DNA from: Saprospirales bacterium GYS_P2D
GTDB lineage: Bacteria; Bacteroidota; Bacteroidia; Chitinophagales; Saprospiraceae
Reading direction: 5' to 3'
DNA length: 64,000 nt
NCBI GenBank assembly: GCA_009833045.1
Contig: WUUP01000002.1
Coordinates: forward strand, 62,001 to 126,000
The notes beneath the pieces are model-generated. The model had not been told where the DNA came from, did not search any database, and saw only the letters and a program-made list of their open reading frames with translations. Positions 17,635 to 33,585 of this stretch are shown here, piece by piece (within the stretch, counting starts at the first letter, position 1; each line of letters starts with the position of its first letter). The translations under genes and the position numbers were made by a program.

Positions 17635-17645
17635 AGGGTGGCTTT
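17635..17645. repeat. 11-base direct repeat at the 3' edge of the defence operon
   Basis: AGGGTGGCTTT here recurs exactly at 27031-27041, beyond the other end of the defence operon. It overlaps the stop codon of the ATPase gene by two bases. The pair could mark insertion boundaries, but 11 bases is short. Confidence 0.35.
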
Positions 17646-19344
17646 ACTCATTTAGGTATGTTTTAAGTTCTTTAATTGACTCGATTGCTGCAACTAATTC
17701 CGCTCTGTATAGAGGATTATCGCCCCCATGCGATGCAGGATTCATTATACGATCTAATATCTCTTTGATTTGATTTATGTGCTCAAGTTTTGAAACCTCA
17801 TTTTTTCTAACTTTTAGCATGTTATCAACGAGCTTGTTTCTTAGAGTTCTTAACCTGCCTTTTTGTTCCAAGTTTAGTGCATTGTCATTTTCGAAGTCTG
17901 TCTTTAATTTTTCAAGAATCGCTGGCTCCAAATTTGATCTGTAAACATCTTTAAAGGTCTTATATTCATTTGCTAAGACAGTTTTATAGTACACGTTAAG
18001 CTTTTCTGACAAACTTGTGAATTCCTTGTCCAGATTAGGGAGTTGAGGTCTTAATAGTTCCGTTATAACTTTTTCTGCTTCTCTTCTTAATCGATTCCCT
18101 ACTGCTTCAAATTCACCTTCCGATAATTCCTTTTGAGCTTTTTGAAGTTCTGATAAATCGACTTTTATTTTTGGTGCTTCATTCTTTGATTCGTCTTTCA
18201 AGAATTTGTAATAAACCCAATTTTCGTCATCAGTATTTCGTCTAATCAGATTAAAGAAGGCTTTGTCATGGGTTAATATTATTTTCTGGAATGAATCGAA
18301 ATACCTGAGACTCTCTTTATTCTCTTTGTTTAGGATGATTCTGACTATATCCATTCTGTTAGACATGTCAAGACTTATTAGCATATCATCTAACACTAAT
18401 ATTTTGAAATCTGTACTTTGTACTCTTGATCTCAATGCTCCAATTCTAATGCTTATGGCTATTCTTGTGAGCTGTGCTTCATTGAGAAATGATTGAACTC
18501 TACTGATCTTTTTCCAATTTTCACCTTCATTAATCTCAACTTCTAATTTGATTTTTAGATTCTCATGCCGAAGGCTGGCCTTTCCTTCTTCCCATATTTG
18601 TTTCTTTATCAGATCAAAATTAAATTTCTTTGCAAAGGTTAACTTCAGTTTTATAACGTCATCACCTTTATAGAAATGCTCTTTAATAAACACATTCGCA
18701 TTAGTCTCGATCTCTTGAAGTAGTGCATCTATTTTATCATTTAGATCAGAAATCTTTGCTTCGTATCTGTCTCGAGGCCCTCGAGAAACAACTCGTCCAT
18801 TGGTTTTTGGAACATCCAAAGTATCAGCCTTGATTATATCGTTTAGCCAATTTTTAGCGTCTTTAGTAAGTAGTGAGAATATATCTCTTTCAAAGACCGG
18901 CCACAGATTAACTTCTTGTTTATGGGAGCCTCGATAGAAATTGTGAAGTAACTTATAGTTGATGAAATCACTCGCCAAGTTTAGTTCTTGGATTTCAGGA
19001 TTAGCTGTATTTATGGTTCCATGTGATATGGTATATGTCGTCTCAACAGCATCTTCGTCTATAGAAGTGATTTTTACGTAAGAATCTTCATTTTGATCGA
19101 CAAAGACATTTTTCAATGATTGATGTGTGCTTTTATTCCCTTCATCAAAGACTTCGAAATACTTTTGAACCTCAGGAATAGTTTTAGAACTACTTTGCAA
19201 TATTGTATACAATGCCCAAAACAGTGAAGACTTACCCGCTCCGTTGTTACCATAAACTAAAACATTCTTACTATCGATAGAAAAAGTCTGCTCCTCTTGA
19301 AAAGCCTTAAAATTCTTTATTTTAATTTCTTTGAGTCTCTTCAT
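17644..19344 (-). CDS. SMC/RecF-like ATPase of the defence operon
   Basis: 566 residues. The N-terminus (LKEIKIKNFKAFQEEQTFSI) is typical of RecF/SMC-type AAA ATPases. Walker A is GNNGAGKSS (residues 32-40). A degenerate signature (LNEAQLTRIAISIRIGALR) precedes Walker B (FKILVLDDMLISLD) and an H-loop-like ILTHDKAF. The insert between the lobes is short (about 150-260), much shorter than in SMC or Rad50. After the ATPase core comes a helical, charged C-terminal third (about 390-566) that I do not recognise; no TOPRIM or HNH nuclease motif is evident. It begins 3 bases after the methylase stop, and that stop codon forms part of its ribosome site (TAAGGA before ATG). It is probably the energy-dependent sensor or effector of the system. 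Composition is AT-rich. Confidence 0.85.
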   Translation of the reverse strand: MKRLKEIKIKNFKAFQEEQTFSIDSKNVLVYGNNGAGKSSLFWALYTILQSSSKTIPEVQKYFEVFDEGNKSTHQSLKNVFVDQNEDSYVKITSIDEDAVETTYTISHGTINTANPEIQELNLASDFINYKLLHNFYRGSHKQEVNLWPVFERDIFSLLTKDAKNWLNDIIKADTLDVPKTNGRVVSRGPRDRYEAKISDLNDKIDALLQEIETNANVFIKEHFYKGDDVIKLKLTFAKKFNFDLIKKQIWEEGKASLRHENLKIKLEVEINEGENWKKISRVQSFLNEAQLTRIAISIRIGALRSRVQSTDFKILVLDDMLISLDMSNRMDIVRIILNKENKESLRYFDSFQKIILTHDKAFFNLIRRNTDDENWVYYKFLKDESKNEAPKIKVDLSELQKAQKELSEGEFEAVGNRLRREAEKVITELLRPQLPNLDKEFTSLSEKLNVYYKTVLANEYKTFKDVYRSNLEPAILEKLKTDFENDNALNLEQKGRLRTLRNKLVDNMLKVRKNEVSKLEHINQIKEILDRIMNPASHGGDNPLYRAELVAAIESIKELKTYLNE

Positions 19345-19347
19345 TCC

Positions 19348-22300
19348 TTAGCTTTCTAATATGGGTTTCAGAATTTCAGGGCTTCGTACTGCGAAGAGTT
19401 TCATCCGGTTACGGACTTCGTTGTCTGGGTGAGTCCAAGTGTCATATAGTTGGTTTATAACAGTTTCTTTTTCCACAATAGAAAGATCTTTAAAATCTTT
19501 TCCTTTCATGACTTCTTGAATATCTCGCTCTACATGTTCTACGATATCAATTTCTTTTTCTTTCATGTGGTCGAGGAAATAGAGGTTGAAAATCAAACTA
19601 TTTTGAATTTGATTAATCACATTGAAACTTGCATGTTTAGATCCTATTTCCATAAGTATTTGTGATAAATAATCTACACTTTCAGTTGCCATATCTGGAA
19701 TTGGAAATGGTTTTAAATAGTCAGGCTTAAACCTAAAATAACCATTCGCCATAACAGAACCTGTATTTTTTAAATACCACCAAATTACACTTGAGTTTAA
19801 TATACCTATCCAATACCAGTAGCTTTCTACTATTGTAGACTTTTTAATATAGCCATAAACAGTAGTAGTAAAGTAATATTTCCTTTCTTGATCATATGTA
19901 AAGTTTCCTCCCATCGAGACATCAGGTGCAACCAATTTCTGCTTTTCAAATAAAGTTTGATTTTTTGGGTAAATATATCGGAACCAATAGGGGTCATTTA
20001 TGAGCCTTCCTTTTTCACGGTTTTTTAGAACAGTTTCATTTCTTTTGAGGTAGTTGTAAGCTTGAGGAAAATTGGACTTAATATACATTTCTGACATCAA
20101 TTCACTTTTATTTTCTCTAATTTGGTATGGGAAAATCACTATATTATTAGTATGCAATTTGTCATATTTGTGAACTTGATCTCCTTTCAATAATGGTTTT
20201 GTAATTGCTTTTTCAATTTTGACACTTTCACCAATTTCTTTAGAATATCCGGTAACATAATCATCATGTATATCGCAGTTTGTCAAAAAGAATACACTGT
20301 CCTTACTTGTAGCTATTCCTTGATATATTTTCTCAAATACATCATTTAGCGTTCTTTTATTGCAGCGTAATTTATCAAGTATAAATCCTGTTGATTGATC
20401 GGTTAATGTAAAGCCAGAAATCTTTAAATTATTCAGTGAATAGATATTGAATTCTGAAGCTGACAAAGCGGATAAATAATTATTAAGTGCTTTGCCTGTA
20501 TATAAATCAGTATTTAATTGATTATAGGATAGGGTTTGTGATTTTTTTTCAAAAAACTGAATACCTGTATATGTTGAAGCGTTGAAAACTTGATATTCGT
20601 CAAAGGATATTATTCTACTTAAAGCTTTTTCTTTTAACAAAAATCCTCTTAACCCCTTGCCAAATGCTGCATTAGTCCACTTAACTGGCATTATGTAACA
20701 AACTAAGCCAGTTTTATTACTAAGTTGAACTCCTTTTTCTGTGAATATTGCATATAAATCATAAGAGCCGGTTGCTGAGAAATAATGTTTACTAAGCCAA
20801 TCTGCAAATTGTGTGTTGGATTCCCTAATTCCTTGAACTCGCAGGTAAGGTGGATTTCCAATCACAACATCAAACCCTTCCTTTACATCGAACATCCATT
20901 CTGAATCAAAATATGAAGCGGAAGCATTCTGATCATAAGGATCCCATGAAGCTAATTTGTCGGCAGTTTCATTATGCCAACCACTTTTCTTCAATTCTTC
21001 TGATATAGCATTTCTAAGCTCTTCGTCTTTCTTTCGGTATTTTAGTTTAGTGTCTTTTGTCCTTGCTCCGAATAATTTATGACGGATAGCTTTTAGTTCT
21101 TTTTCTAATTCTTTGATTGATTCTGTATCATACAAGCTTGCTTGAGCTGAAGGCTTTTCTATACCTATTAAGGTGTTAGCAGTTACGAATTTGCTTTCCA
21201 AGTTTGGTAAAGCCCTGATACCAAAGTTTTCTGCACTGTCATTTTTCTTTTGATCGACTACAAGCGAAATAAAGAATCGCAATTTGGATATCTGGGTAGC
21301 TATAGGTTGTATATCAACACCATAGATGCAGTTCTCAATCAAATAAAGTTTACGAGCATAATCAGGGTCGTTGATATTGCTATCAAATGCATTATTGATC
21401 TCTATCAGTTTGTTTTCTCTTTCTTGCTTGTCCTCGATGTCATATGCTTTTTTCGATGCTTGTATCGCTTTTTCAAGCTGAACTTCTTTCCAATGTTCAT
21501 TGGTTGGATCAAGCTTTTGCAGGATATGCACCATCTTTTGGAGTATTCCCATTGGGAATGCTCCAGAACCACATGCAGGATCCAGAATTTTGCATTTGTC
21601 AAGATTTTTTATAATCAATCTCGATAACTGTGTATTGTCTTCAAATGGATTGACAGGATCAAATGAAGTTAGTTCATGAAGTTTTTTATCAAGCTCTTCT
21701 TCGTCTATACCCCAATCATCAATGGCATTCTTTAGATAGGCGATGAGACTTTCATTTACCATATAATTGACAATCTCCCTTGGCGTATAGAAAGACCCTG
21801 TTTGCTTTCGTGCGGTAGACTTTGTCTCAGGATTATAACTTGCCAATAGATTTTCAAATACTTTACCCAATAGTTCTGGGTCAAGTGCTACTTCCTCTTC
21901 TATTGGTGTATTTTCTGTGATAGTAAATTTGTAAGACTTAAGTATATTGATGAGTCCTTTTACAGCTGCTTTTTTGTGCTTCTTATTGTTAGAGCCATAA
22001 TCTTGACTTAAATCGACTTCTGTGTCCAAGCCAAAGAAAAGGTAGTCTGGTACAATTAACTTTTCACTTTTGGTCATTTGATCGGAGAAGCCATCAATGT
22101 AGATATTTTGGTATTTGTCATCTAAGCACTCAAATAAACCACCATTTAGAAAGGGTACAGTTTGATTCATTAAGTCTAAAAATGCATCAGGATCCTTGAA
22201 CTCTTTCTTATATCTCATTAGATAATCAATGCCTCTATGTGTGCCATAACCATCCCCTCGGAACCCTCTTTTTCTTTTGTCAACAGAATCAGCTTCTATA

Positions 22301-23304
22301 GGACAATTTAAGCTTGCAAAGAATAGGTTTTGCAATATTGCTTTGTAGTAGATGCTATCTGTACTGGCATGTTTGAACATACCTTCTTGCTGATAAGGAT
22401 TGATATCTTTTAGGATATCGTCTTGAAGTGCATCCAAATCAAATAGCGACTCTGGAATCAGCTTCTTTTCTTTGATAAACCACGTAAATAACAATCGAGT
22501 GAGCAAACGAATAACATTAGTCGCATTGTGCTCATTAATTAGCTCAGATAATTTATCATGGTCTGCTTTGCCGTACTTTTTTATAACATCTTCTAATGTC
22601 GGTTCGGAAGGAAAGGTTACATTTTTGATCGCCCAGAAATACCAATTGGACAATTCTTGGTAGAATTTCTTATTTAGAATATTGACGCTAAAAACTTCTT
22701 GCCAGTATTTGTACAATGCATCAAAAGTCCGTATTGCTTTTTTACCAGTAGTGGTGATTCTCAGTGCATTGATAATGTCTTCATGGCCTCTATGTGGCTT
22801 TTCTATAGATATATCTCTTAATAAAGAAACCTTGCCTGCCTTTTCTCCCTCTCTCCATTCTTGTTTGTATTTGATTCTCTCCGTATTGGCAAAGGAGATA
22901 AAGGATTCATCTTCATTGGAATATTTAAAGACGACAACAACGGGAGTGAAGTGGAATTCCCGATTGAAAGCTCTTGCTATATCTGCCAATTGTGTCCTTG
23001 TAGGTAGAAGATTGTTTTCTCTCTTGTTTAACTCTACACCAAAGAATAGTATACCATCATAGTCGGATTTTATTTTTCTATGATCAAAGCTGTCATTTCC
23101 TTCGAATGCTGCATCATCGACCATGCCTACAAAGTAAACATCACCAATGAGCTGAAATGTCTCGTTGTCCTTATAGGTAAAATCTAATATTTCCTTTGCT
23201 GTCGTAGGTTCATCAGATATACAATTGATAGGAACGTTTAGTTCTTTAAGTAGGGCTTTTATTGCTGGAAGGAAATTGATTTCCTTGAAGTAGTTGAGTT
23301 TCAT
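19348..23304 (-). CDS. Eco57I-type adenine DNA methylase, large (restriction-modification/defence)
   Basis: 1318 residues. A central N6-adenine methyltransferase core carries motif [10 protein letters not shown] (Asp575-Gly581 and on) and motif IV NPPY (817-820), in the order I-IV of Eco57I/type IIG enzymes. The ~250-residue N-terminal domain includes [13 protein letters not shown] and [13 protein letters not shown] see no clear PD-(D/E)XK triad there. An all-helical segment ([24 protein letters not shown]) leads into the core. The C-terminal ~400 residues (from [15 protein letters not shown] onward) are placed like a target-recognition domain, which would remove the need for a separate specificity subunit. 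It should mark host DNA as self. It starts 3 bases after the helicase gene. It resembles PglX and DrmMI in class, but no PglZ, BrxC or DUF1998 gene is present. Confidence 0.9.
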
Positions 23305-23307
23305 AAT

Positions 23308-26300
23308 TTATATTGTAATAATGAACCAAGTAATTAAGTCAAATTGATCCATTTGATATTTTTCAGTTGTTGTCTTTCCTTCTTTCATTCTGGAGAGGGC
23401 TTTTTTGTTTCCTCTCTTCAGCTTTGATAGCACATCTTTCACCTCGGACCCCATCTTCTCTTTAATAGAACCATCTTCCATTATTTCATGGTCAATTGAT
23501 TCATTTTTTAGATAGGTTTTTAAACTTGTCACTAATTTAGATATGGACATCTCATCACCCTTATCCACTTTGTCAGGCACGTACCGATCATAATCCTTGT
23601 GAAATGTTATTGCATCTAATACTTCTTTTTGGTTAGCGAGCACTCTTTCTCCATTTTCATCTATGTAGACAAGATCAAAAGAAGTGTATGTATGATTATC
23701 CGCATTTGCAGGTTTTGTAGGATATGCTAATAAGGCTACTAATCCACTTTTACCACAAATTGTACTATCAGCTTTGAATCCTGAATAAACACCTTTTGGC
23801 ATTCTTTTGTACTTCTCTTTATCTCTGTTAAATTCTTCTAACAGCTCTTGACGATACCTTTCCAAGGATAGATCATCAAAGCCAAATGATTCTTCACCGT
23901 CCAAATCATCTAAACTCACTTCCATTTGTCGGATCATACGATCTTTCATCTTTTGATCTAATGAATCATTTTCTGCCATCGCTTTGAAAGTATCAGAAAA
24001 CTGTTCATCGACCTCAGACCCAGCTAATTTCATAGCTGCCATTCGTTCTTCAATTCTACCTTGTAAGTTCAAGTAGCTGTTGATGTTGTTAGAAGGCCAA
24101 AAATTAATGCTGAATATTTCCTTATTGGGAGAACCAAGTCGATCAATTCTACCTAATCGTTGGATAATACGAACAGGGTTCCAATGGATATCATAATTGA
24201 TAACCATATCAGCATCTTGAAGGTTTTGCCCTTCACTTAATGAATCAGTTGCTATAAGAATATCAATTGGGTTTCTGATTTTATTATAAGCTTTAGGGTC
24301 GTTTTCTGAAATCCATTTTATCCATTTAGAGTAGGAAGTATCTGAGTTGACAGGCCATTCCTTTTCCTTGAACAATTTAGTGTATGGAGCGAACCTCTCT
24401 AATATGGGTTCGAAATTCTTTGTTTCTTCAATACTATCCCACCTTTTTGTGCCTGTACCACTAACCATCGCAACTTTATCAAATCCTCTGGTAGTCAATT
24501 GATCAAACAGATACTCAGCGGTATCTCTATAGACAGTAAATATTACAACTTTCTGATTACTATTATTTTTTGCTCGTTGTCTTTTATTCCTAATTTGTTT
24601 TATAAGCTCTGTGAGTTTTGTGTCTGTTGATTTTAAGTTATTAGGAACTATAGTTTCATCACTGATTTTCTTTTGAAACTTCTCGAGATTAGATACAATA
24701 TTATCTAATGCTTCGATATCATTTTTTAGGTCACTTTTATAATTGTCAAGATTCCCCGCTTCATCAATATCTTTAAGGCTTACCTTTCTCTTTTTGCCTA
24801 ATGTGAGTTCTTCTACTTCGTTACTAAGTTCGTCATCTTCAAATAGTAATGATTGACTGTTTAGGTCATTATCATCTTGGGATTGCATTCCTTCTTGAAA
24901 CAACTTGATTTTATCTAATGCATTTTGATGATGTGCTTGAATTTTCTGGATAGTAGAATGAAAAGAAATCCAACTTGATTCAAGTCTTTTGACCATTAAG
25001 ATGTACATCATCTTTACTAAGAATCGATCTCTTTGCTTCTCATTTTGAAGTACATCTTTTTCTATCTCATCATCTTCTTCGTCTGCCAAATAAAATGATG
25101 GCTGATATCCAGACAACATTGGTGGGAAGTGATTAAATAACTCCTCAAAGGATTCAAAATTTCCAAGTTGACTTGGAGTGACAAATAAATTGATAGGTTT
25201 AGCTTTAGTAGGAAAAACAAGATCTTCTTGTTCTCCTTCTATCATCTTCCGAGTTCTTGCTACTGTTAGAGAATCAGTTAGAGTGAAGAAGCTGTCGGGC
25301 AATTTTTCTATAAAGTCTCCAATTATTGGATTTGGTCGTTCTCTCCATTCATTAAAAGCACGTTGTGCAGATCTAAATGCAAAATCTAAATTCCTCACAC
25401 CAAGCGAATCATAATAGCCTTGAGAATTCCCTTTGACCATTAAGCTAAATTGATTCCTAATATCATTTAACGAATTGTTGATTGGAGTTGCAGAAAGTAA
25501 CAAAACTTTTATGTCTTCATTCGGTTGAATTAGGTTTTCCATCAAAAACTTATACCTATTAGATTTATTATTTCTGAGATTGTGACTTTCATCGATGACG
25601 ATTAACTTGGGTTTGTCATTTTGAAAGTACTTATCATCTCGGTCATTGTATTTCTCCAACCTTTGTTCGTACATGTCAGTATGGAATCTTACAAAGAAAT
25701 CTAATTTGTCATTTTCAAATTTTGAATTTTGGTGTATTCTGTATCTTCTCCAATTCTGCTCTAATTTCTTTGGACAAAGCAATATTATTTCTCGTCCCTG
25801 TTGTTGAAAGAATTTCATTACCGCCAAAGCACTCCATGTCTTACCAAGTCCTACAGCATCAGCCAATATTGCTCCATCGTATTTCTGGAGCATTCTAATT
25901 AAACTCAGGACTCCTTTTTTCTGGAAGTTGTACAATGTATTATAGATTACACTGTTTTCAAGCCTTCCTATCTGTCTATTGAAGTTGGGATCATCTTCAA
26001 TCTCCAGAATTTGGTTTCCAAATAGTTCAAACAGAATTTTATAGTAAATTTCTCTTGGAGTATACTTAACAAAGATTCTTTCAATTTCGGAGATCAGATA
26101 CTTTTTAAAATCAACCTTTTCTCTTTTCCCATTGGGGTGGATTAGCGTTTTCTGTTTATGTGCATTTTTTCTATGCCAAAGTTCTTCAAACCACTTCGTC
26201 AGTTCTACATATTCAAGATCTTTATTTGTCTTACCAATATTCAATTCAATATTATTGGTTTTCTTTAGTCCAATACCAGCTTCTGTAAGATTAGAGCTTC

Positions 26301-26691
26301 CAGATATAAAATAATTATGTCTATCGTCATTTTTTGCATCATGCAAATACACTTTAGCATGACAGAAGTTTGGTTCAAGAGTTTTAGCTATGACATTATC
26401 TTGCTTTAGGAAATTCACTGCTTCTTGAGCTATGCTACTTAATTGTAATGCTGCTTCTATTGTAATATTCTCGTTTAACAAATCCAAAGGTCGTTCATCA
26501 ATAGTGTCTATGTTCACTATGTCTCCAAGAACCATTCTGTATTCGTTGATTCTATCATTGGTCTTTTTAGATAGAAAAGCTAATGCACCTATCGTGAAAT
26601 AGCCTGTAACTATATCAAGAGAACCTTCTTCAGTATATTTTGAAATCCACTCGTGGACTTTTAGATTTTCATTTTCGTTATCTAATATCAT
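23308..26691 (-). CDS. PLD-nuclease/SNF2-helicase fusion protein
   Basis: 1127 residues. The N-terminal ~170 residues are a phospholipase-D-type nuclease module with a perfect HxK(x4)D motif (His111, Lys113, Asp118) followed by GSSN (131-134). The SF2/SNF2 helicase has motif I DAVGLGKT (278-285), motif II DESH (367-370), motif III LLLSATPINN, a long charged insert between lobes (about 560-670), and motif VI QRLGRIDRLG. The ~200-residue C-terminal tail is unassigned. Only one HKD motif is seen, so activity probably needs a dimer, as in single-motif PLD nucleases. It should translocate on DNA and cut. It shares a 4-base ATGA overlap with the regulator upstream and is 3 bases from the methylase, so the three are one expression unit. 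Confidence 0.92.
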   Translation of the reverse strand: MILDNENENLKVHEWISKYTEEGSLDIVTGYFTIGALAFLSKKTNDRINEYRMVLGDIVNIDTIDERPLDLLNENITIEAALQLSSIAQEAVNFLKQDNVIAKTLEPNFCHAKVYLHDAKNDDRHNYFISGSSNLTEAGIGLKKTNNIELNIGKTNKDLEYVELTKWFEELWHRKNAHKQKTLIHPNGKREKVDFKKYLISEIERIFVKYTPREIYYKILFELFGNQILEIEDDPNFNRQIGRLENSVIYNTLYNFQKKGVLSLIRMLQKYDGAILADAVGLGKTWSALAVMKFFQQQGREIILLCPKKLEQNWRRYRIHQNSKFENDKLDFFVRFHTDMYEQRLEKYNDRDDKYFQNDKPKLIVIDESHNLRNNKSNRYKFLMENLIQPNEDIKVLLLSATPINNSLNDIRNQFSLMVKGNSQGYYDSLGVRNLDFAFRSAQRAFNEWRERPNPIIGDFIEKLPDSFFTLTDSLTVARTRKMIEGEQEDLVFPTKAKPINLFVTPSQLGNFESFEELFNHFPPMLSGYQPSFYLADEEDDEIEKDVLQNEKQRDRFLVKMMYILMVKRLESSWISFHSTIQKIQAHHQNALDKIKLFQEGMQSQDDNDLNSQSLLFEDDELSNEVEELTLGKKRKVSLKDIDEAGNLDNYKSDLKNDIEALDNIVSNLEKFQKKISDETIVPNNLKSTDTKLTELIKQIRNKRQRAKNNSNQKVVIFTVYRDTAEYLFDQLTTRGFDKVAMVSGTGTKRWDSIEETKNFEPILERFAPYTKLFKEKEWPVNSDTSYSKWIKWISENDPKAYNKIRNPIDILIATDSLSEGQNLQDADMVINYDIHWNPVRIIQRLGRIDRLGSPNKEIFSINFWPSNNINSYLNLQGRIEERMAAMKLAGSEVDEQFSDTFKAMAENDSLDQKMKDRMIRQMEVSLDDLDGEESFGFDDLSLERYRQELLEEFNRDKEKYKRMPKGVYSGFKADSTICGKSGLVALLAYPTKPANADNHTYTSFDLVYIDENGERVLANQKEVLDAITFHKDYDRYVPDKVDKGDEMSISKLVTSLKTYLKNESIDHEIMEDGSIKEKMGSEVKDVLSKLKRGNKKALSRMKEGKTTTEKYQMDQFDLITWFIITI

Positions 26692-26885
26692 TTCTCGTTA
26701 TCTGTTTTAAGTAGTTCTTTTGGATCCACGCCTAATACTTCAGCAATAAGGAATAAGTCCTTAATACTCGGTTGTATTTTGTTTCCAACATAGCGGTTTA
26801 CCATATTGTAACTTTTACCGATTTGATCTGCTAACCATGTTTGTTTAATTCCTTTAGCTTCAAGAACTTCTTTAATTCTGTTCAT
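26688..26885 (-). CDS. XRE/Cro-CI-type HTH regulator
   Basis: 65 residues, almost entirely one helix-turn-helix domain: IKQTWLADQIGKSYNMVNRYVGNKIQPSIKDLFLIAEVLGVDPKELL. Size and sequence style match small XRE repressors and the controller (C) proteins of restriction-modification systems. It is the first gene of the defence operon, and its stop overlaps the helicase start in ATGA. It probably autoregulates the operon through the inverted half-sites just upstream (26896-26960), delaying nuclease expression after entry into a new host. Autoregulation is inferred. Confidence 0.88.
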   Translation of the reverse strand: MNRIKEVLEAKGIKQTWLADQIGKSYNMVNRYVGNKIQPSIKDLFLIAEVLGVDPKELLKTDNEK

Positions 26886-27485: not shown

Positions 27486-30400
27486 ATGTCTATGAATTAC
27501 AAAACACTGCATTTGTCTTTAGTGCCTATCTATAAATATGGCTTGACGGGTGCTTTTATCTTGTTTTGCGGCCTTCTGATGGCCCAAAATACACTACTCA
27601 CAGGGGTAGTGACCTCAGATGATGGTGAGCCACTTCCCGGAGTGACGATCTTAGTCAAGGGATCTACCGTTGGAACATCTTCAGATATCGACGGGTATTA
27701 TGAGATAAATGTAAATACCGATGACGCCTTGGTATTTTCATTTATTGGCTTCCAGACTCAAGAATATGAAGTCGGGAATCGCTCAGTTTTAGATGTGATA
27801 TTGCGCATGGACGCCCAAAATCTCGATGAAGTAATCGTGACGGGCTATGCCTCTATCAAGAGATCTGATATGGTGACTGCTCATACCTCTCTCGATGCTG
27901 AAGACCTCAACAAAACTATCAATCAAACGGTAGAGCAAGCCCTTCAGGGGAGAGCTGCTGGAGTACAGGTCACTCAAAACACTGGACAACCTGGTGGTGG
28001 CATCTCCGTCAACGTACGGGGTATCAGTACGATCAATGGCAATACTCAGCCACTATATGTGGTGGATGGTGTCCAGATGCAAGTAGATCAGGTAGAAGCT
28101 GGTGCATCGAGTGCCTCCAATCCGCTATCAGGTCTCAATCCATCGGATATAGAGTCCATGGAGGTGCTGACAGGGCCCGTGGCTACCTCTCTATATGGAT
28201 CCCGAGCGACTAATGGTGTCATCGTGATCACTACTAAGAGTGGCGAAGCTGGTGAAATGCGTATCAAGTATGACTACACTATCAGCCAGCAGGCTCAGCC
28301 AAACTTCCTCGATATGATGAATCTCAGCGAGTACGCTGCGATGGCTAAAGAGTACTACGACATCGAGGGAGGCGATCTGCCAGGCTACTTTGAGGATCCG
28401 TCGATACTCGGTGCAGGGACTAATTGGCAAGACGAACTCTTCAATAGTGCGATCATGCAAAAGCATAACATAGCACTCAGTGGTGGTACCGAAAAGTCAC
28501 GATACTACCTATCTGGAGAATATTTTGATCAAGAAGGGGTCGCTATCGGATCAGGATTCAAGCGATACAGCAGTCTCCTGAAAGTGGATAATCAGCTGAG
28601 CGATCGGCTAAACGTAAGTGCTAAGATCAACCTAAGCCAAACAGACACTAAACTCATCACTGGTCAAGAGAATATCATCTCTACAGCCCTCAGGATGACC
28701 CCGAACGTACCTGTGAGAAATTTTGATGGATCATTCTCTGGCGGAAATCTCGAGAACACCAGTGCTCAGCAGTTTCTCCCGCCAAATCCTATCGGACTGG
28801 CAGAGATCACGACTAATGAGCAGCTGAGAAGAAGAGCTTTGGCTGGCCTCAGCTTCAATCTAAAGATTATTGAAGGGCTGAATTTCATAGCATCTGTAAA
28901 CGGTGATATCCAACATACAGAGGGTACGTACTTCCAGCCAGAGTATAAGTTTGGATTTCAAGAGCGTACTACTGCGACACTCGCTGAGCGAGCTAATAGC
29001 AGCAACTATTGGAATCTTCAGCAAATGTTGACTTACAATAAAGGATTTGGTGATCACTCACTGAATGTCATGGCGCTACACGAGGCGCAGAAGAGTCAGT
29101 GGAAGAATCTCTCAAGTAGCATATCTGACTTCGTATCCTCTCAAGTAGTGGATCTCAATCTCGGTAATAGTGAAACGGCTACCGTCGGAGGTGGCAAAGG
29201 ATCATGGGCACAGGAGTCTTATTTAGGTCGATTAAACTATAACTTCAAAGAGAGATACTACCTCATGTCGGCAGTACGTGCTGATGGATCGTCTAACTTT
29301 GGATCAAACAATAAATGGGGGGTATTCCCATCGGCCTCAGTAGCTTGGCGTGTATCAAAAGAGCCATTCTTCAATACGAAAGTAGTGAATGAGCTTCGCC
29401 TAAGATTTGAAACCGGTATCACTGGTAATCAAGGTGGTGGTGGCTTCATCTATGGTACACTCGGGACATGGACGACTCCATGGGGTACAGGGTTCGCTCT
29501 CAATCGATACTCAAATCCCGATCTGAAATGGGAAGAGACGACTACTCGAAACTTTGGTTTGGACGTATCACTCTTGGAGAGTCGATTCCAAGTGGAGTTT
29601 GACTACTATGTCAAAGAAACCGATGAGCTCCTCACAGAAGCCGCTAACCCTGACTATCTCGGTGTGACAGGTAGTGGAGGTATTGGCAATCCTTTTGTCA
29701 ATGTAGGCTCACTCAGAAACAAAGGATGGACGATCCAGCTGGAAACGCAAAATATCAATACACGAGATTTTAGCTGGTCTACTAATTTCAATTTCTCAAC
29801 AGTCGACTCTGAGATCTTATCATTGAATACTTCTTCAGGATTTTATGATCGTACATCTTGGTGGATGAATAACTGGACACAGCGATCTGCTGTCGGACAG
29901 GCTCCTTGGCTATTTTATGGATACGTAGAGGATGGTCTCTATGAGTCTGTAGAACAGCTCGAAAATGCCGCTCTACCAGTAGATAATAATGGCAATAAAC
30001 TACCAATCGCCGAAGATGGCATCTGGGTAGGTGATGTGAAATATGTGGATATCAGCGGTCCAGACGGAGTGCCTGATGGCATCATCGACACGCATGATCA
30101 GACCTACATCGGAAATCCTAATGCTAAATACACTTTTGGCTTGACTAACTCATTCAGCTACAAAGGATTTGATCTGAGTGTACTCCTGACAGGTGCGTTT
30201 GACTATGATGTGTACAATTATACGGCCTATGAAGCTACTGCGCCTAATAATATCAATCTCAGTAGAAACTTCCTCAATAGTGCCTATGAGTACGCTCGTA
30301 TCGGAGTAGATGATAGTGGTAATACCGTCATCACTAATAGCGGAACGGATGTGCCTCGTATCAATGTAGATGACCTCAATGGAAACTACTCGAGACATTC

Positions 30401-30683
30401 TACGAGATTCGTAGAGGACGGATCATTCGTACGTATCAAGAATATCACAGTGGGATATAATCTACCAGCATCTATGATCAGAAAATCAGGATTCATGAAC
30501 TCTATGCGTATATCGCTGTCGGCTCAGAATATTTACACATTTACTAATTATACAGGCTATGATCCTGAGATCGGTGCATATACTGATCGTAATGTGAGTG
30601 CGTCAAATCAAGCGATAGGAGTAGATAATGGGAGATACCCATCAGTAGCGCTCTATACGGCGAGTGTAGGAATTCAATTTTAA
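27486..30683 (+). CDS. SusC/RagA-family TonB-linked outer-membrane transporter
   Basis: 1065 residues. After a signal peptide (likely cleaved after LLMAQ) comes a carboxypeptidase-D-like repeat (LTGVVTSDDGEPLPGVTILVKGSTVGTSSDIDGYYEI), then the TonB-box-like NLDEVIVTGY. The plug domain follows (LQGRAAGVQVTQNTGQPGG, VRGISTINGNTQPLYVVDGV, MEVLTGPVATSLYGSRATNGVIVITTKSG), and then the 22-strand barrel to the C-terminal aromatic (VGIQF). No N-terminal STN domain is seen, so it should not signal to an anti-sigma factor. Together with the SusD 10 bases downstream it forms the import complex for an oligosaccharide or similar ligand. ATG at 27486 is used; ATG at 27492 is an alternative. Confidence 0.95.
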   Translation: MSMNYKTLHLSLVPIYKYGLTGAFILFCGLLMAQNTLLTGVVTSDDGEPLPGVTILVKGSTVGTSSDIDGYYEINVNTDDALVFSFIGFQTQEYEVGNRSVLDVILRMDAQNLDEVIVTGYASIKRSDMVTAHTSLDAEDLNKTINQTVEQALQGRAAGVQVTQNTGQPGGGISVNVRGISTINGNTQPLYVVDGVQMQVDQVEAGASSASNPLSGLNPSDIESMEVLTGPVATSLYGSRATNGVIVITTKSGEAGEMRIKYDYTISQQAQPNFLDMMNLSEYAAMAKEYYDIEGGDLPGYFEDPSILGAGTNWQDELFNSAIMQKHNIALSGGTEKSRYYLSGEYFDQEGVAIGSGFKRYSSLLKVDNQLSDRLNVSAKINLSQTDTKLITGQENIISTALRMTPNVPVRNFDGSFSGGNLENTSAQQFLPPNPIGLAEITTNEQLRRRALAGLSFNLKIIEGLNFIASVNGDIQHTEGTYFQPEYKFGFQERTTATLAERANSSNYWNLQQMLTYNKGFGDHSLNVMALHEAQKSQWKNLSSSISDFVSSQVVDLNLGNSETATVGGGKGSWAQESYLGRLNYNFKERYYLMSAVRADGSSNFGSNNKWGVFPSASVAWRVSKEPFFNTKVVNELRLRFETGITGNQGGGGFIYGTLGTWTTPWGTGFALNRYSNPDLKWEETTTRNFGLDVSLLESRFQVEFDYYVKETDELLTEAANPDYLGVTGSGGIGNPFVNVGSLRNKGWTIQLETQNINTRDFSWSTNFNFSTVDSEILSLNTSSGFYDRTSWWMNNWTQRSAVGQAPWLFYGYVEDGLYESVEQLENAALPVDNNGNKLPIAEDGIWVGDVKYVDISGPDGVPDGIIDTHDQTYIGNPNAKYTFGLTNSFSYKGFDLSVLLTGAFDYDVYNYTAYEATAPNNINLSRNFLNSAYEYARIGVDDSGNTVITNSGTDVPRINVDDLNGNYSRHSTRFVEDGSFVRIKNITVGYNLPASMIRKSGFMNSMRISLSAQNIYTFTNYTGYDPEIGAYTDRNVSASNQAIGVDNGRYPSVALYTASVGIQF

Positions 30684-30693
30684 AAAACCTAAA

Positions 30694-32394
30694 ATGAAAA
30701 ACATGTATATCAATAAATCATATAAGGTGGTGTGCTCTATGGCACTGCTACTATCGATATTCGTTATCAGTTGTTCTGAAGATTTTTTGGAGCTACCTCC
30801 TGAGAGCAATCTTACTGATGGAGACTTCTATCAGAATGACTCTCAAGTCCAGGCAGCTACTGCTACGCTGTACAATCTGGTTTGGTTTGACTATAATGAC
30901 AAAGCATCCTATAATATTGGAGACTTCAGAGGGGGATCTTACTTTGATGCATGGAGTGATCGGGACAATGTAGAGTTTAAAACGACACCGACTACTCCAG
31001 AAAATGGTACCGCATGGAGATCATTTTATAATGTGATCGGCCAGGCTAATACTACCATGTATAACGTCATTAACAACTCTGGTGATGCAGTATCAGAGCG
31101 AGTGAAGAATATCTCTATAGCTGAGTGTAGATTCATGAGAGCACTGGCCTATGAGCACCTTGTGATGAACTGGGGGCCAGTTCCGATTATTGAAAACAAC
31201 TTGGATTTATTAGACGATGCACTCTCTGTACGTCGTAATACGATCCCTACGATATGGGAGTTTATCACGAGAGACTATGAGGCCGCTGCGGAGCTGCTAC
31301 CAGATGTATCGCTCCAGCCAGGCAGACTCAATCGATGGTCAGCGGAGGGCATGCTCGCCAGAGCCTATCTGACACGTGCAGCTGTAGACTCACAGGGAGG
31401 CCAGCTCGTACAGGATCATCTGGACAAAGCCAAAATGTATGCTCAGCGAGTCATCGAGCAGAGTGGAGCTTCTCTCTTAGCTAATTATGCAGATCTATTC
31501 ACCTATCCATACGACAATAATGCGGAGTCATTATTCTCTCTTCAGTGGGCATTTGCTTCCGCAGAATGGGGTAGTAACAATAGTGTACCTGCCTATCTCA
31601 CACCTACCTCAGAGCTGGGCAATGGTGACGGCTGGGGAGGCGCTAAAGGTGCTACATTCTGGATGCTGAGCCTCTATGACGGATTTAACATGATAGATGA
31701 AAACACTCTCCAGGGTCGTACACTTGACTCAAGACTCCATGCGACATTTATGTTGCCGAGCTATTTCTATCCAGACCTACCATTCAATAATGAAAATAGT
31801 GAAATAGAGCTCGGATATCGAGTGCCAAACAATGATGGTCAATTAGGCCAAGAAGTAGACTTTGCATACATAAAGAAGTATGTCGTCGGTCGACTGAGCC
31901 CGACAGAGGCGATCTCACAGCGATACAGTCATGACACCTATATGCTGAGGCTCGCTGAGATGTATCTGATATATGCGGAGGCCACACTAGGCAATAACGC
32001 CAGCACGTCTGATGCTCAGGCATTAGAATATTTCAATGCAGTACATGCTCGTGCTACTGGCCAAAATATCAGTACTGACCTCACACCTGAGATCATATTT
32101 GAGGAGAGAGCTAAAGAATTTGCGGGAGAAGCAAGGGTATGGTACGAGATCGTGCGTATCCACTATGCGGATCCAGAGCGTGCTTATGATATCGTGAGCA
32201 ATCAAGATAGGGGTAGATACTCTATCGCTCCTGACAATCCGCTCGATCCGACGAGCTGGACGATCCAGAAGACAGCTTGGGATAATACTCGACACTTCAC
32301 AGCTTCCTCAGCTAACTTCCAACTGCCACTACCGGCTAACGAAGTGAGCTCTGCCCCTAATCTATTAGAAGATCCTGTGGATTACATTTTCTAA
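30694..32394 (+). CDS. SusD/RagB-family nutrient-binding lipoprotein
   Basis: 566 residues. The lipobox is VISC (Cys27), followed by SEDFLELPPES, the canonical start of mature SusD proteins. TPR-like helices with RFMRALAYEHLVMNWGPVPII and LAEMYLIYAEATLGN, and the C-terminal half ending FQLPLPANEVSSAPN, are typical of the family. SusD caps the SusC barrel at the cell surface and binds the ligand. It lies in the same operon, 10 bases after susC and 18 bases before the next gene. Ligand identity cannot be read from sequence. Confidence 0.95.
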   Translation: MKNMYINKSYKVVCSMALLLSIFVISCSEDFLELPPESNLTDGDFYQNDSQVQAATATLYNLVWFDYNDKASYNIGDFRGGSYFDAWSDRDNVEFKTTPTTPENGTAWRSFYNVIGQANTTMYNVINNSGDAVSERVKNISIAECRFMRALAYEHLVMNWGPVPIIENNLDLLDDALSVRRNTIPTIWEFITRDYEAAAELLPDVSLQPGRLNRWSAEGMLARAYLTRAAVDSQGGQLVQDHLDKAKMYAQRVIEQSGASLLANYADLFTYPYDNNAESLFSLQWAFASAEWGSNNSVPAYLTPTSELGNGDGWGGAKGATFWMLSLYDGFNMIDENTLQGRTLDSRLHATFMLPSYFYPDLPFNNENSEIELGYRVPNNDGQLGQEVDFAYIKKYVVGRLSPTEAISQRYSHDTYMLRLAEMYLIYAEATLGNNASTSDAQALEYFNAVHARATGQNISTDLTPEIIFEERAKEFAGEARVWYEIVRIHYADPERAYDIVSNQDRGRYSIAPDNPLDPTSWTIQKTAWDNTRHFTASSANFQLPLPANEVSSAPNLLEDPVDYIF

Positions 32395-32412
32395 ATCAAA
32401 AAAGAGAATCAA

Positions 32413-33585
32413 ATGAACTATAACATAAAACATTTATCACTCTACTTGCTATTGGCACTGATCATCGGGATCATCGCCTGTAGTGATGACGATGGTGAGA
32501 TCGAGGCGACAGGGGATCCTATGATCCACTATGTCCGTGTCACACCACCGGAGTCGTCAGATTCATTGTTAGTGGCTGCTTTTCAGGGTAGCCTCATAGC
32601 CATCATAGGCGAAAACCTCGGTCATGCTAATCAAGTGTGGTTTAATGATCAGCAAGCGGAGCTCAATCCTGTCTATGTTACTAATCAATCCATCCTCGTA
32701 GGTGTACCGACCGCTGTGCCAAAGGAAGTGGATAATCAGGTGAGACTCTATTTTAATAATGGTGATTCATTAGCCTACGACTTTCAGGTAGAAATCTCGG
32801 AGCCTCTGATCGAAGCTATGAAGTCCGAATATGTCTTTGAGGGGGATGTAGCAACTATCTATGGCAACTTTTTCTATGAGCCACTGACTGTGACATTTGC
32901 AGGAGGTGTAGAGGGTGAAGTACTGCCAGCCAGTACCGAAGATGGCAATGTCATCAATGTCGTCGTACCTGCTGGCGCACAAACTGGACCTGTGACCGTG
33001 ACCACTAATTTTGGAGCTACCGAGTCTGATTTCTGGTTTAGAGATGATAGGAATATAGTCTTGAGCAGCGATCCTTTCACTGGCTGGTGGAATGCTGACT
33101 ATGTCGTAGATGCGCTCGCTGTGGGGCCAGATGACCCTGCACCCATCAATGGTAACTATATCCGTATCGCCAAGCCAATCGGTGCCTGGGAATGGACAGA
33201 AGTAGCTGGTGGACCTGCATCTGCCATGGGCGATATTTCAAAAAACTTCCCAGAGGACGCTATCAAAAATCCTGAAGATTACAATTTCAAATTTGAGATC
33301 AATACACTCAAGCCATACGATAACAATACGATACGTCTCAATTTTGGCTTGCAGAGCGAGATCAATGATGCCTACTTCTGGCAGCCGCCATATGATAGCA
33401 AGGGGCAGTGGGAGACTGTAGTGATTCCATTGGAGCAGATGTTTGCAGCCTACGAAGAAAACGGAGTCACACCTACTGTCAATCCGGATGGATACTGGAC
33501 AAGAGTCATGATATTCGATGGCAATGCATTGGACTGTGATATCGCTTTTGACAACTTCAGAGTAGTGCCAAAGACCTTGAACTAA
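32413..33585 (+). CDS. surface glycan-binding lipoprotein (SGBP-B-like)
   Basis: 390 residues. The lipobox is IIAC (Cys23), followed by an acidic SDDDGE export signal for surface lipoproteins. Two IPT/TIG-like beta-sandwiches are visible: VTPPESSDSLLVAAFQGSLIAIIGENLGHANQVWFN and EYVFEGDVATIYGNFFYEPLTVTFAGG. A C-terminal binding domain runs from about residue 215 (FTGWWNADYVVDALAVGPDDPAPINGNYIRI...) with several exposed tryptophans and ends DCDIAFDNFRVVPKT. The layout matches the second surface glycan-binding proteins of polysaccharide utilisation loci. It is third in the operon and probably captures polysaccharide for the SusCD complex. Confidence 0.85.
   Translation: MNYNIKHLSLYLLLALIIGIIACSDDDGEIEATGDPMIHYVRVTPPESSDSLLVAAFQGSLIAIIGENLGHANQVWFNDQQAELNPVYVTNQSILVGVPTAVPKEVDNQVRLYFNNGDSLAYDFQVEISEPLIEAMKSEYVFEGDVATIYGNFFYEPLTVTFAGGVEGEVLPASTEDGNVINVVVPAGAQTGPVTVTTNFGATESDFWFRDDRNIVLSSDPFTGWWNADYVVDALAVGPDDPAPINGNYIRIAKPIGAWEWTEVAGGPASAMGDISKNFPEDAIKNPEDYNFKFEINTLKPYDNNTIRLNFGLQSEINDAYFWQPPYDSKGQWETVVIPLEQMFAAYEENGVTPTVNPDGYWTRVMIFDGNALDCDIAFDNFRVVPKTLN

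What the first reader, a model, noticed from the sequence alone, without database searches (positions are those of the whole stretch)
26175..26691. Nuclease module fused to the front of the helicase
Residues 1-170 of the helicase carry HxK(x4)D (His111, Lys113, Asp118) and GSSN 131-134, a complete single PLD motif, in the same chain as helicase motifs I, II, III and VI. In DISARM the PLD and SNF2 parts are separate proteins (DrmC, DrmD). A one-chain translocase-nuclease would be a compact effector and would explain why the methylase lacks an obvious PD-(D/E)XK site.
Basis: partly seen in the sequence, partly recalled or inferred. Interest (0 to 1): 0.55.

Follow-up and report, generated by a model that had tools for sequence, protein, structure and literature searches.

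The report
Nuclease-helicase arm of a restriction operon
A bacterial gene joins a DNA-cutting domain to a DNA motor beside a DNA-marking enzyme, a known design, and a sister group that teams up with a different restriction system has lost the cutter but kept the motor, which points to what the cutter is for.

Summary
Residues 1-172 (26175-26691, minus strand) carry H111-x-K113, GSSN 131-134 and an unnoticed third motif, NIELN 147-151. AlphaFold2 of residues 1-235 gives a confident PLD fold (pLDDT 85.5, pTM 0.81); its best PDB matches are SauUSI, itself a one-chain PLD-helicase restriction enzyme, and the NgoAVII R protein. D118 is not conserved; E149 is. The fusion is not new: SauUSI, Type-2 BREX-related systems and PbeA have it.

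The gene sits in a low-GC operon: XRE regulator, PLD-SNF2 protein, Eco57I-type methylase, RecF/SMC-like ATPase. It is neither DISARM nor the DUF499 (BR/Hma) system. Most likely it is R-M-like: the PLD-SNF2 chain restricts, the methylase marks self and chooses the site. In the nearest relative the methylase's C-terminal part is swapped while the helicase stays about 96% identical.

The new part is a natural experiment. Of 87 relatives, 65 keep the nuclease site; 59 of these have such a methylase (or a piece of one) downstream. In 22, one clade, the site is destroyed but the sampled ATPase residues are intact, and all 22 sit with DUF4391 or type III Mod/Res genes.

The parts
26688..26885 (-). 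65-aa XRE/Cro-type HTH protein, overlapping the helicase start by 4 bp; likely control protein of the operon
   Evidence: HTH_3 4.1e-11; 100% identical in L031
23308..26691 (-). PLD-SNF2 helicase fusion, 1127 aa
26167..26691 (-). PLD nuclease domain, about residues 1-175
   Evidence: AF2 of residues 1-235 pLDDT 85.5; Foldseek 7clg SauUSI 2.2e-7, 4rct NgoAVII R 2.9e-7; profile versus PDB 7clg 1.2e-11
26353..26361 (-). HxK, H111 and K113
   Evidence: 65 of 65 in the intact group (the grouping criterion); in the 22 others H aligns at 111 in 1 and K at 113 in 0
26290..26301 (-). GSSN 131-134
   Evidence: each residue 65 of 65 in the intact group; N134 in 2 of the 22 others
26239..26253 (-).
   Evidence: E149 and N151 65 of 65 in the intact group; 1 and 4 of the 22 others
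25837..25851 (-). SNF2 motif I GLGKT 281-285
   Evidence: K284 65 of 65 and 22 of 22
25582..25593 (-). SNF2 motif II DESH 367-370
   Evidence: D367 and E368 65 of 65 and 22 of 22
24139..24162 (-). SNF2 motif VI QRLGRIDR 844-851
   Evidence: R848 65 of 65 and 22 of 22
19348..23304 (-). Eco57I-type N6-adenine methylase, 1318 aa, with TaqI_C specificity domain
   Evidence: Eco57I 3.4e-39, TaqI_C 2.2e-11; type IIG models best in PADLOC
20845..20856 (-). methylase motif IV NPPY 817-820 (motif [10 protein letters not shown] at residue 575)
19348..20757 (-). variable C-terminal part of the methylase (residues about 850-1318), swapped in the nearest relative
   Evidence: 84-100% identity to L031 per 50-residue block up to residue 800, then 4-46%
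17644..19344 (-). RecF/SMC-like AAA/ABC ATPase, 566 aa, Walker A GNNGAGKS at residue 32
   Evidence: AAA_29 2.7e-8 above cut-off, SMC_N 6.3e-10 just under its cut-off; homologue downstream in 15 of 44 intact relatives with at least 5 kb of sequence downstream

Best explanation
The N-terminal 175 residues are a PLD-superfamily (NgoAVII/SauUSI-like) nuclease fused to a SNF2-type DNA translocase. The fusion is the restriction subunit of an R-M-like operon. Shown by computation: the fold, the active-site motif and its conservation, the ATPase motifs, the operon and its recurrence with a methylase, the low GC, and the variable C-terminal part of the methylase. Inferred: (1) the Eco57I-type methylase marks adenines of its target in the host and, through its C-terminal recognition part, also finds unmarked sites; (2) it brings in the PLD-SNF2 protein, which pairs through its PLD domains so that two HxK motifs form one active site; (3) ATP-driven movement by the SNF2 motor activates or positions the nuclease, which cuts the unmarked DNA; (4) the RecF/SMC-like ATPase, an optional part absent from most relatives, regulates assembly or gates cutting; (5) the small XRE protein controls expression as in other R-M systems.
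For: PLD fold: AF2 pLDDT 85.5 and pTM 0.81; top PDB matches SauUSI and NgoAVII R protein; sequence profile finds SauUSI first in the PDB at 1.2e-11; SauUSI also ranks 11 and 33 for the whole-chain model. Kept by selection: 65 of 65 intact relatives conserve GSSN, E149 and N151 although grouped by H111 and K113 only. Partner logic: a methylase or piece of one downstream in 59 of 65; of the six without, four have under 330 bases of contig left and two (L054, L157) are real exceptions. All 22 relatives that lost the site have DUF4391 and/or type III Mod/Res within 9 kb downstream, 0 of 65 intact ones do, nor anywhere in their stretches, while K284, D367, E368 and R848 stay in 22 of 22. Specificity: the methylase of L031 differs mainly in its C-terminal part and the ATPase C-terminus diverges too (24-66% from residue 401), while the helicase stays 82-100% identical in every 50-residue block. 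Operon GC 33.9% against 46.8% and 44.9% in the flanks.
Against: No experiment. Loss of the site maps to one change on the tree, so the partner pattern is one evolutionary event, not 22. A second nuclease gene (Res or YhcG) was seen in the held stretch of 19 of the 22; L049, L075 and L128 show Mod and DUF4391 without either. Ten of 65 intact relatives also have a YhcG nuclease downstream, so 'only nuclease present' is not universal. L054 and L157 have no detected methylase. The ATPase is missing from 29 of 44 intact relatives with enough sequence. The full-length model is poor (pLDDT 68.5, pTM 0.53); dimerisation was not modelled. Fold matches are moderate (TM-score by query 0.48-0.50, rmsd 4.2-7.6 for the three best). 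That the methylase directs cutting is inference.
Confidence: 0.72

Rival explanations
1. The PLD domain is an intact nuclease, but the system acts BREX- or DISARM-like: the motor and methylase stop phage DNA replication without cutting, and the PLD domain is a dispensable back-up, as DrmC is in DISARM.
For: DrmC is reported as dispensable for DISARM (PMC9142583, passages). The helicase is kept with a dead PLD site in 22 of 87 relatives, so the motor alone is useful in some contexts. The methylase has partial PglX similarity (BREX_2 PglX 77.8 bits against a cut-off of 400).
Against: Three of three type III Res proteins tested from that clade carry an endonuclease domain of their own, and Res or YhcG lies in the stretch of 19 of 22. 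In the 65 intact relatives the nuclease site is strictly kept. No PglZ, DUF1998 or BREX ATPase family matched the operon proteins in Pfam.
Confidence: 0.15
2. The PLD domain acts on something other than incoming DNA, for example it resolves covalent protein-DNA ends or cuts host nucleic acid to kill the infected cell.
For: The PLD superfamily includes Tdp1, and 2 of 31 domains weakly match Tyr-DNA_phospho. Suicide action has been proposed as an alternative for HKD-helicase systems (PMC10853773, passages).
Against: Closest sequence and structure matches are restriction endonucleases; 23 of 31 domains match the NgoFVII restriction endonuclease family.
Confidence: 0.08
3. Structural domain only: the N-terminus holds the dimer together and does not cut.
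For: A whole sister clade keeps the domain without its catalytic residues (22 of 87).
Against: The window's copy and 65 of 65 relatives with H and K keep GSSN, E149 and N151.
Confidence: 0.05

Closest known systems
SauUSI (ATP-dependent restriction enzyme, PDB 7clg)
   Same: One chain with an N-terminal PLD nuclease (HxK(x)4E) and an SF2 helicase-like motor; best hit by sequence profile and by fold (PMC7913695 passages)
   Different: SauUSI has its own SRA recognition domain at the C-terminus and recognises methylated targets; here no such domain was matched and a separate Eco57I-type methylase and an ATPase are encoded
Type-2 BREX-related (BR) systems, DUF499-centred; Hma systems are placed in the same DUF499 group
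   Same: N-terminal HKD nuclease plus Swi2/Snf2 helicase as the effector, N6-methylase, ATPase (PMC12839542, sections 28-30 read)
   Different: Defining DUF499 ATPase, DUF1156 methylase and DUF3780 not found in the operon proteins; the ATPase here is RecF/SMC-like
CxC-ABC-ATPase / PbeABCD systems
   Same: HKD nuclease fused to an SF2 helicase, with an ABC-type ATPase and, in some, a methylase (PMC10853773 passages)
   Different: Those have DndE and, in some, cytosine methylases; 2 of 17 helicases of A1 matched PbeA at E 1e-10 or better, the window's not among its 20 listed
NgoAVII and CglI
   Same: PLD nuclease plus SF2 motor R-M systems; NgoAVII R protein is the second fold hit
   Different: Nuclease and motor are separate subunits there (PMC7913695 passages)
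DISARM
   Same: Methylase, helicase and PLD nuclease in one locus (PMC9142583 passages)
   Different: No DUF1998 (DrmB) match; PLD (DrmC) is a separate protein there; DrmD model far below its cut-off; PADLOC's DrmA model touches only residues 807-861
PADLOC model C3a139 'HKD+Snf2'
   Same: Best PADLOC match of the helicase, residues 90-948, 221 bits, and matched by 17 of 17 A1 members
   Different: A catalogue model; which system it belongs to is not stated in the output

Membership tests
PLD superfamily nuclease | HxK plus GSxN-type motif on the PLD fold | tested here: met
PLD superfamily nuclease | active site from two HxK motifs (dimer) | not tested
   one HxK per chain; no dimer was modelled
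SF2/SNF2 translocase | Walker A, Walker B and motif VI in order | tested here: met
SauUSI-type one-chain enzyme | PLD domain followed by SF2 motor in one chain | tested here: met
SauUSI-type one-chain enzyme | SRA-like recognition domain at the C-terminus | tested here: not met
   no such Pfam match at E 1 or better in the 1127-aa chain
DISARM | DrmB (DUF1998) in the core; DrmD equivalog score | tested here: not met
   no DUF1998 match in the four operon proteins; DrmD 141.7 bits versus cut-off 610
BR systems (Hma group) | DUF499 ATPase, DUF1156 methylase, DUF3780 (Type-2) | tested here: not met
   none matched in the four operon proteins at E 1 or better; features from PMC12839542
BREX | PglZ and a BREX ATPase with PglX | tested here: not met
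   no such Pfam match in the operon proteins; PglX model 77.8 bits versus cut-off 400; not every other gene of the window was scanned
R-M-like system | methylase with motifs I and IV and a target recognition part beside a restriction subunit | tested here: met
   methylase or a piece of one downstream in 59 of 65 intact relatives
R-M-like system | methylation-blocked DNA cutting | not testable with these tools
   needs wet work

The most novel reading that the evidence does not exclude
One PLD-SNF2 family serves two kinds of restriction system. With an Eco57I-type methylase it is the nuclease. With DUF4391 and a type III Mod/Res pair it has lost the nuclease site but kept an intact motor, as an unrecognised motor accessory of type III restriction. 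That gene set recurs on plasmids of Gram-negative and Gram-positive bacteria and an archaeon, and in a phage record.
Probability: 0.5. Interest if true: 0.55.

Novelty: new variant of a known kind. Interest (0 to 1): 0.4.

Why it matters
The fusion itself is ordinary for defence loci. The value lies in the comparison: a set of relatives in which the nuclease residues, not the sampled motor residues, are lost after a switch to type III Mod/Res partners. That makes the role of the PLD domain testable by mutating two residues, and it points to a motor-bearing form of type III restriction for which I saw no description in the listings (a limited open-licence library; the one paper naming DUF4391 was not read).

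Tried and rejected
DISARM, BREX and Hma/BR membership were considered and failed on defining parts. The PDB search with the whole chain and Foldseek with the whole-chain model (SauUSI at ranks 11 and 33) were dominated by chromatin remodellers and other helicases, so the N-terminal domain was modelled and searched on its own. An empty-site test failed: of 12 flank proteins, 2 (the adjacent nuclease/phosphatase-family and thioesterase genes) matched in the stretches fetched from two congeners, and the susC-like protein's highest-scoring matches in the congeners are 33% and 35% identical. The helicase has only weak helicase matches in both congeners, but one of these genomes is 58% complete. The single genome-contig scan gave one locus. 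What PADLOC's C3a139 stands for was not found. The 2020 survey of ABC ATPases in conflict systems, which I recall as relevant, is not held, so earlier description of this exact operon cannot be excluded.

Samples are not random. The 87 relatives are ORFs of at least 1000 aa and over 200 bits from 90 loci: 80 neighbourhoods chosen from the listed matches of two draws of 395 Bacteroidota genomes (some genomes are in both; 20 each), 8 plasmid and 1 phage loci picked from 502 and 12 records with a match, and one named MAG locus (L031). L033, L051 and L071 gave no full-length helicase ORF and were not counted. Some relatives are near-copies. Partner classes come from profiles seeded with ORFs found by similarity to window, L048 and L037 proteins, so very distant partners could be missed. 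The 31 domains of A3 were chosen as intact, so invariance of H and K there is by choice.
Full report
What is there. The finding lies in a 1127-aa ORF, 23308-26691 on the minus strand. It is the second gene of a tight operon. First is a 65-aa XRE protein (26688-26885), then the helicase, then a 1318-aa Eco57I-type methylase (19348-23304) and a 566-aa RecF/SMC-like ATPase (17644-19344). The operon has 33.9% GC against 46.8% on the left and 44.9% on the right. Genes on the left match families of sugar-acid catabolism, a nuclease/phosphatase family and a thioesterase; on the right lie SusD-like and glycan-binding genes. A Saprospiraceae MAG carries the same four genes in the same order (L031).

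The PLD domain is real. H111, K113 and GSSN 131-134 are as reported, and a third motif, NIELN 147-151, was overlooked. A motif of this shape appears in 57 of 200,000 shuffles of residues 1-172. Residues 1-235 modelled with 30 relatives give pLDDT 85.5 and pTM 0.81. The best solved structures are SauUSI (7clg, E 2.2e-7) and the R protein of NgoAVII (4rct, 2.9e-7), followed by human BJ-TSA-9, PLD3, phosphatidylserine synthase, NucT and others; TM-scores by query are about 0.5, so the match is one of fold, not of close detail. Independently of the model, a sequence profile of the domain finds SauUSI first among all PDB sequences at 1.2e-11. Pfam PLDc_2 matches 31 of 31 of these domains and the NgoFVII restriction nuclease family 23 of 31. 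D118 is not part of the motif: the column is D in 3 of 65 intact relatives, and SauUSI has E there (PMC7913695, passages). Whole-chain modelling was weak (pLDDT 68.5, pTM 0.53), so the arrangement of nuclease and motor is not known.

The family. Helicase relatives of at least 1000 aa were collected from 90 loci: 80 from two draws of 395 Bacteroidota genomes, one named MAG locus and nine plasmid or phage loci. This gave 87 proteins. They fall into two groups. In 65, H111 and K113 are present; without further selection all 65 also have G131, S132, S133, N134, E149 and N151. In 22, no K aligns at 113, H aligns at 111 once, N134 is kept twice, E149 once and N151 four times, yet K284, D367, E368 and R848 of the motor are kept in 22 of 22.

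Partners. Of the 65 intact relatives, 59 have an Eco57I-type methylase, or a piece of one, downstream. Of the other six, four have under 330 bases of contig left and two (L054, L157) are true exceptions. Of 44 intact relatives with at least 5 kb downstream, 15 also have the RecF/SMC-like ATPase, 7 a YhcG nuclease, 2 of these both, and 24 neither; on the tree the ATPase needs nine changes, so it comes and goes. Of the 22 without the site, DUF4391 lies downstream in 21, type III Mod in 19 and type III Res in 13; anywhere in the held stretches Mod is seen in 21 and Res in 16, and Res or YhcG in 19. None of the 65 intact relatives has any of the type III genes in its stretch, and none of the 22 has the Eco57I-type methylase downstream. 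Three of three Res proteins tested carry a helicase and an endonuclease domain (PF19778). On the helicase tree, built from columns outside the PLD domain, the 22 form one side of one branch (SH-aLRT 97 with 48 rows; 99 with 88 rows). This is one evolutionary switch, followed by differing decay, not 22 independent ones. It is what one expects if the PLD domain is the nuclease of the methylase-type system and became unnecessary when a type III system joined. Against a simple 'second nuclease' rule: three of the 22 (L049, L075, L128) show neither Res nor YhcG in the stretch held, and 10 of 65 intact relatives have YhcG downstream.

Specificity. Between the window and L031 the helicase is 82-100% identical in every 50-residue block. 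The methylase is 84-100% identical to residue 800 and 4-46% beyond, and the ATPase drops to 24-66% after residue 400. Such a pattern is usual when an R-M system changes its target (general knowledge). It suggests that the methylase's C-terminal part chooses the site for an unchanged restriction subunit, and that the ATPase's C-terminus may touch that part.

Mechanism. Shown by computation: fold, motifs, conservation, operon, partner pattern, variable specificity part. Inferred: self-marking by the methylase, recognition of unmarked sites by the same protein, recruitment of a PLD-SNF2 dimer, ATP-driven movement, cutting, and regulation by the ATPase and the XRE protein. SauUSI gives the experimental precedent for a PLD-SF2 chain: the nuclease domains hold the dimer, ATP hydrolysis powers translocation, and DNA between sites is shredded (PMC7913695 passages).

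Known or new. The fusion is known: SauUSI; the HKD-Swi2/Snf2 effector of Type-2 BR systems (PMC12839542, sections 28-30 read, other passages and the outline seen); PbeA in CxC-ABC systems (PMC10853773 passages); and HKD domains on Rad25-like helicases in a few R-M operons, noted in 2008 (PMC2292703 passages). PADLOC already holds an 'HKD+Snf2' model that matches this protein best. The window's system is not a BR/Hma member (no DUF499, DUF1156 or DUF3780), not DISARM and not BREX. In the listings I saw nothing that describes this operon or a DUF4391-helicase type III set; several listings were capped (25 of 39, 5 of 58,660, 15 of 92), most listed papers were not opened, the library is limited to open licences and one recalled survey is not held. 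I claim only that I did not find it.

Verdict. The interpretation of a one-chain translocase-nuclease is well supported as a structure and likely as a function, but it is an established design. The loss of the nuclease site in the clade that joined type III systems is the part worth following.

Noticed in passing
L073-L080, e.g. L076:7989-16852: A gene set of SNF2 helicase with decayed PLD site, DUF4391, type III Mod and type III Res (Res not seen in L075) on plasmids of Aeromonas, Methanomethylovorans, Desulforapulum, Enterococcus, Acinetobacter and Listeria and in Erysipelothrix phage phi1605. One DUF4391 protein tested had no PADLOC match at E 1e-20 or better.
   Followed up: partly
L042, L043, L045, L046: Type III sets of this clade with a YhcG (PD-(D/E)XK) gene next to Mod; YhcG also sits between helicase and methylase in L037, L041, L055 and L070.
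   Followed up: partly
L033:3659-7041, L071:7346-10638: Helicase relatives split into several ORFs (three in L033, two in L071) with the PLD motif still intact in the first piece.
   Followed up: no
L072:10448-12583: Planktothrix agardhii plasmid with a 63.7% identical PLD-SNF2 protein and a shortened methylase of 711 aa that ends before the NPPY motif.
   Followed up: no
window 17644-19344, residues 401-566: The C-terminal part of the RecF/SMC-like ATPase diverges from L031 together with the methylase's specificity part, while the rest is mostly conserved (74-100% per block).
   Followed up: no
L075:7789-7986, L076:7740-7940: Small HTH genes directly upstream of the helicase also in the type III clade, like the XRE gene in the window.
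   Followed up: no
window 27486-33585: A TonB-receptor-sized (susC-like) ORF followed by SusD and a surface glycan-binding protein with a xyloglucan-binding domain next to the operon.
   Followed up: no
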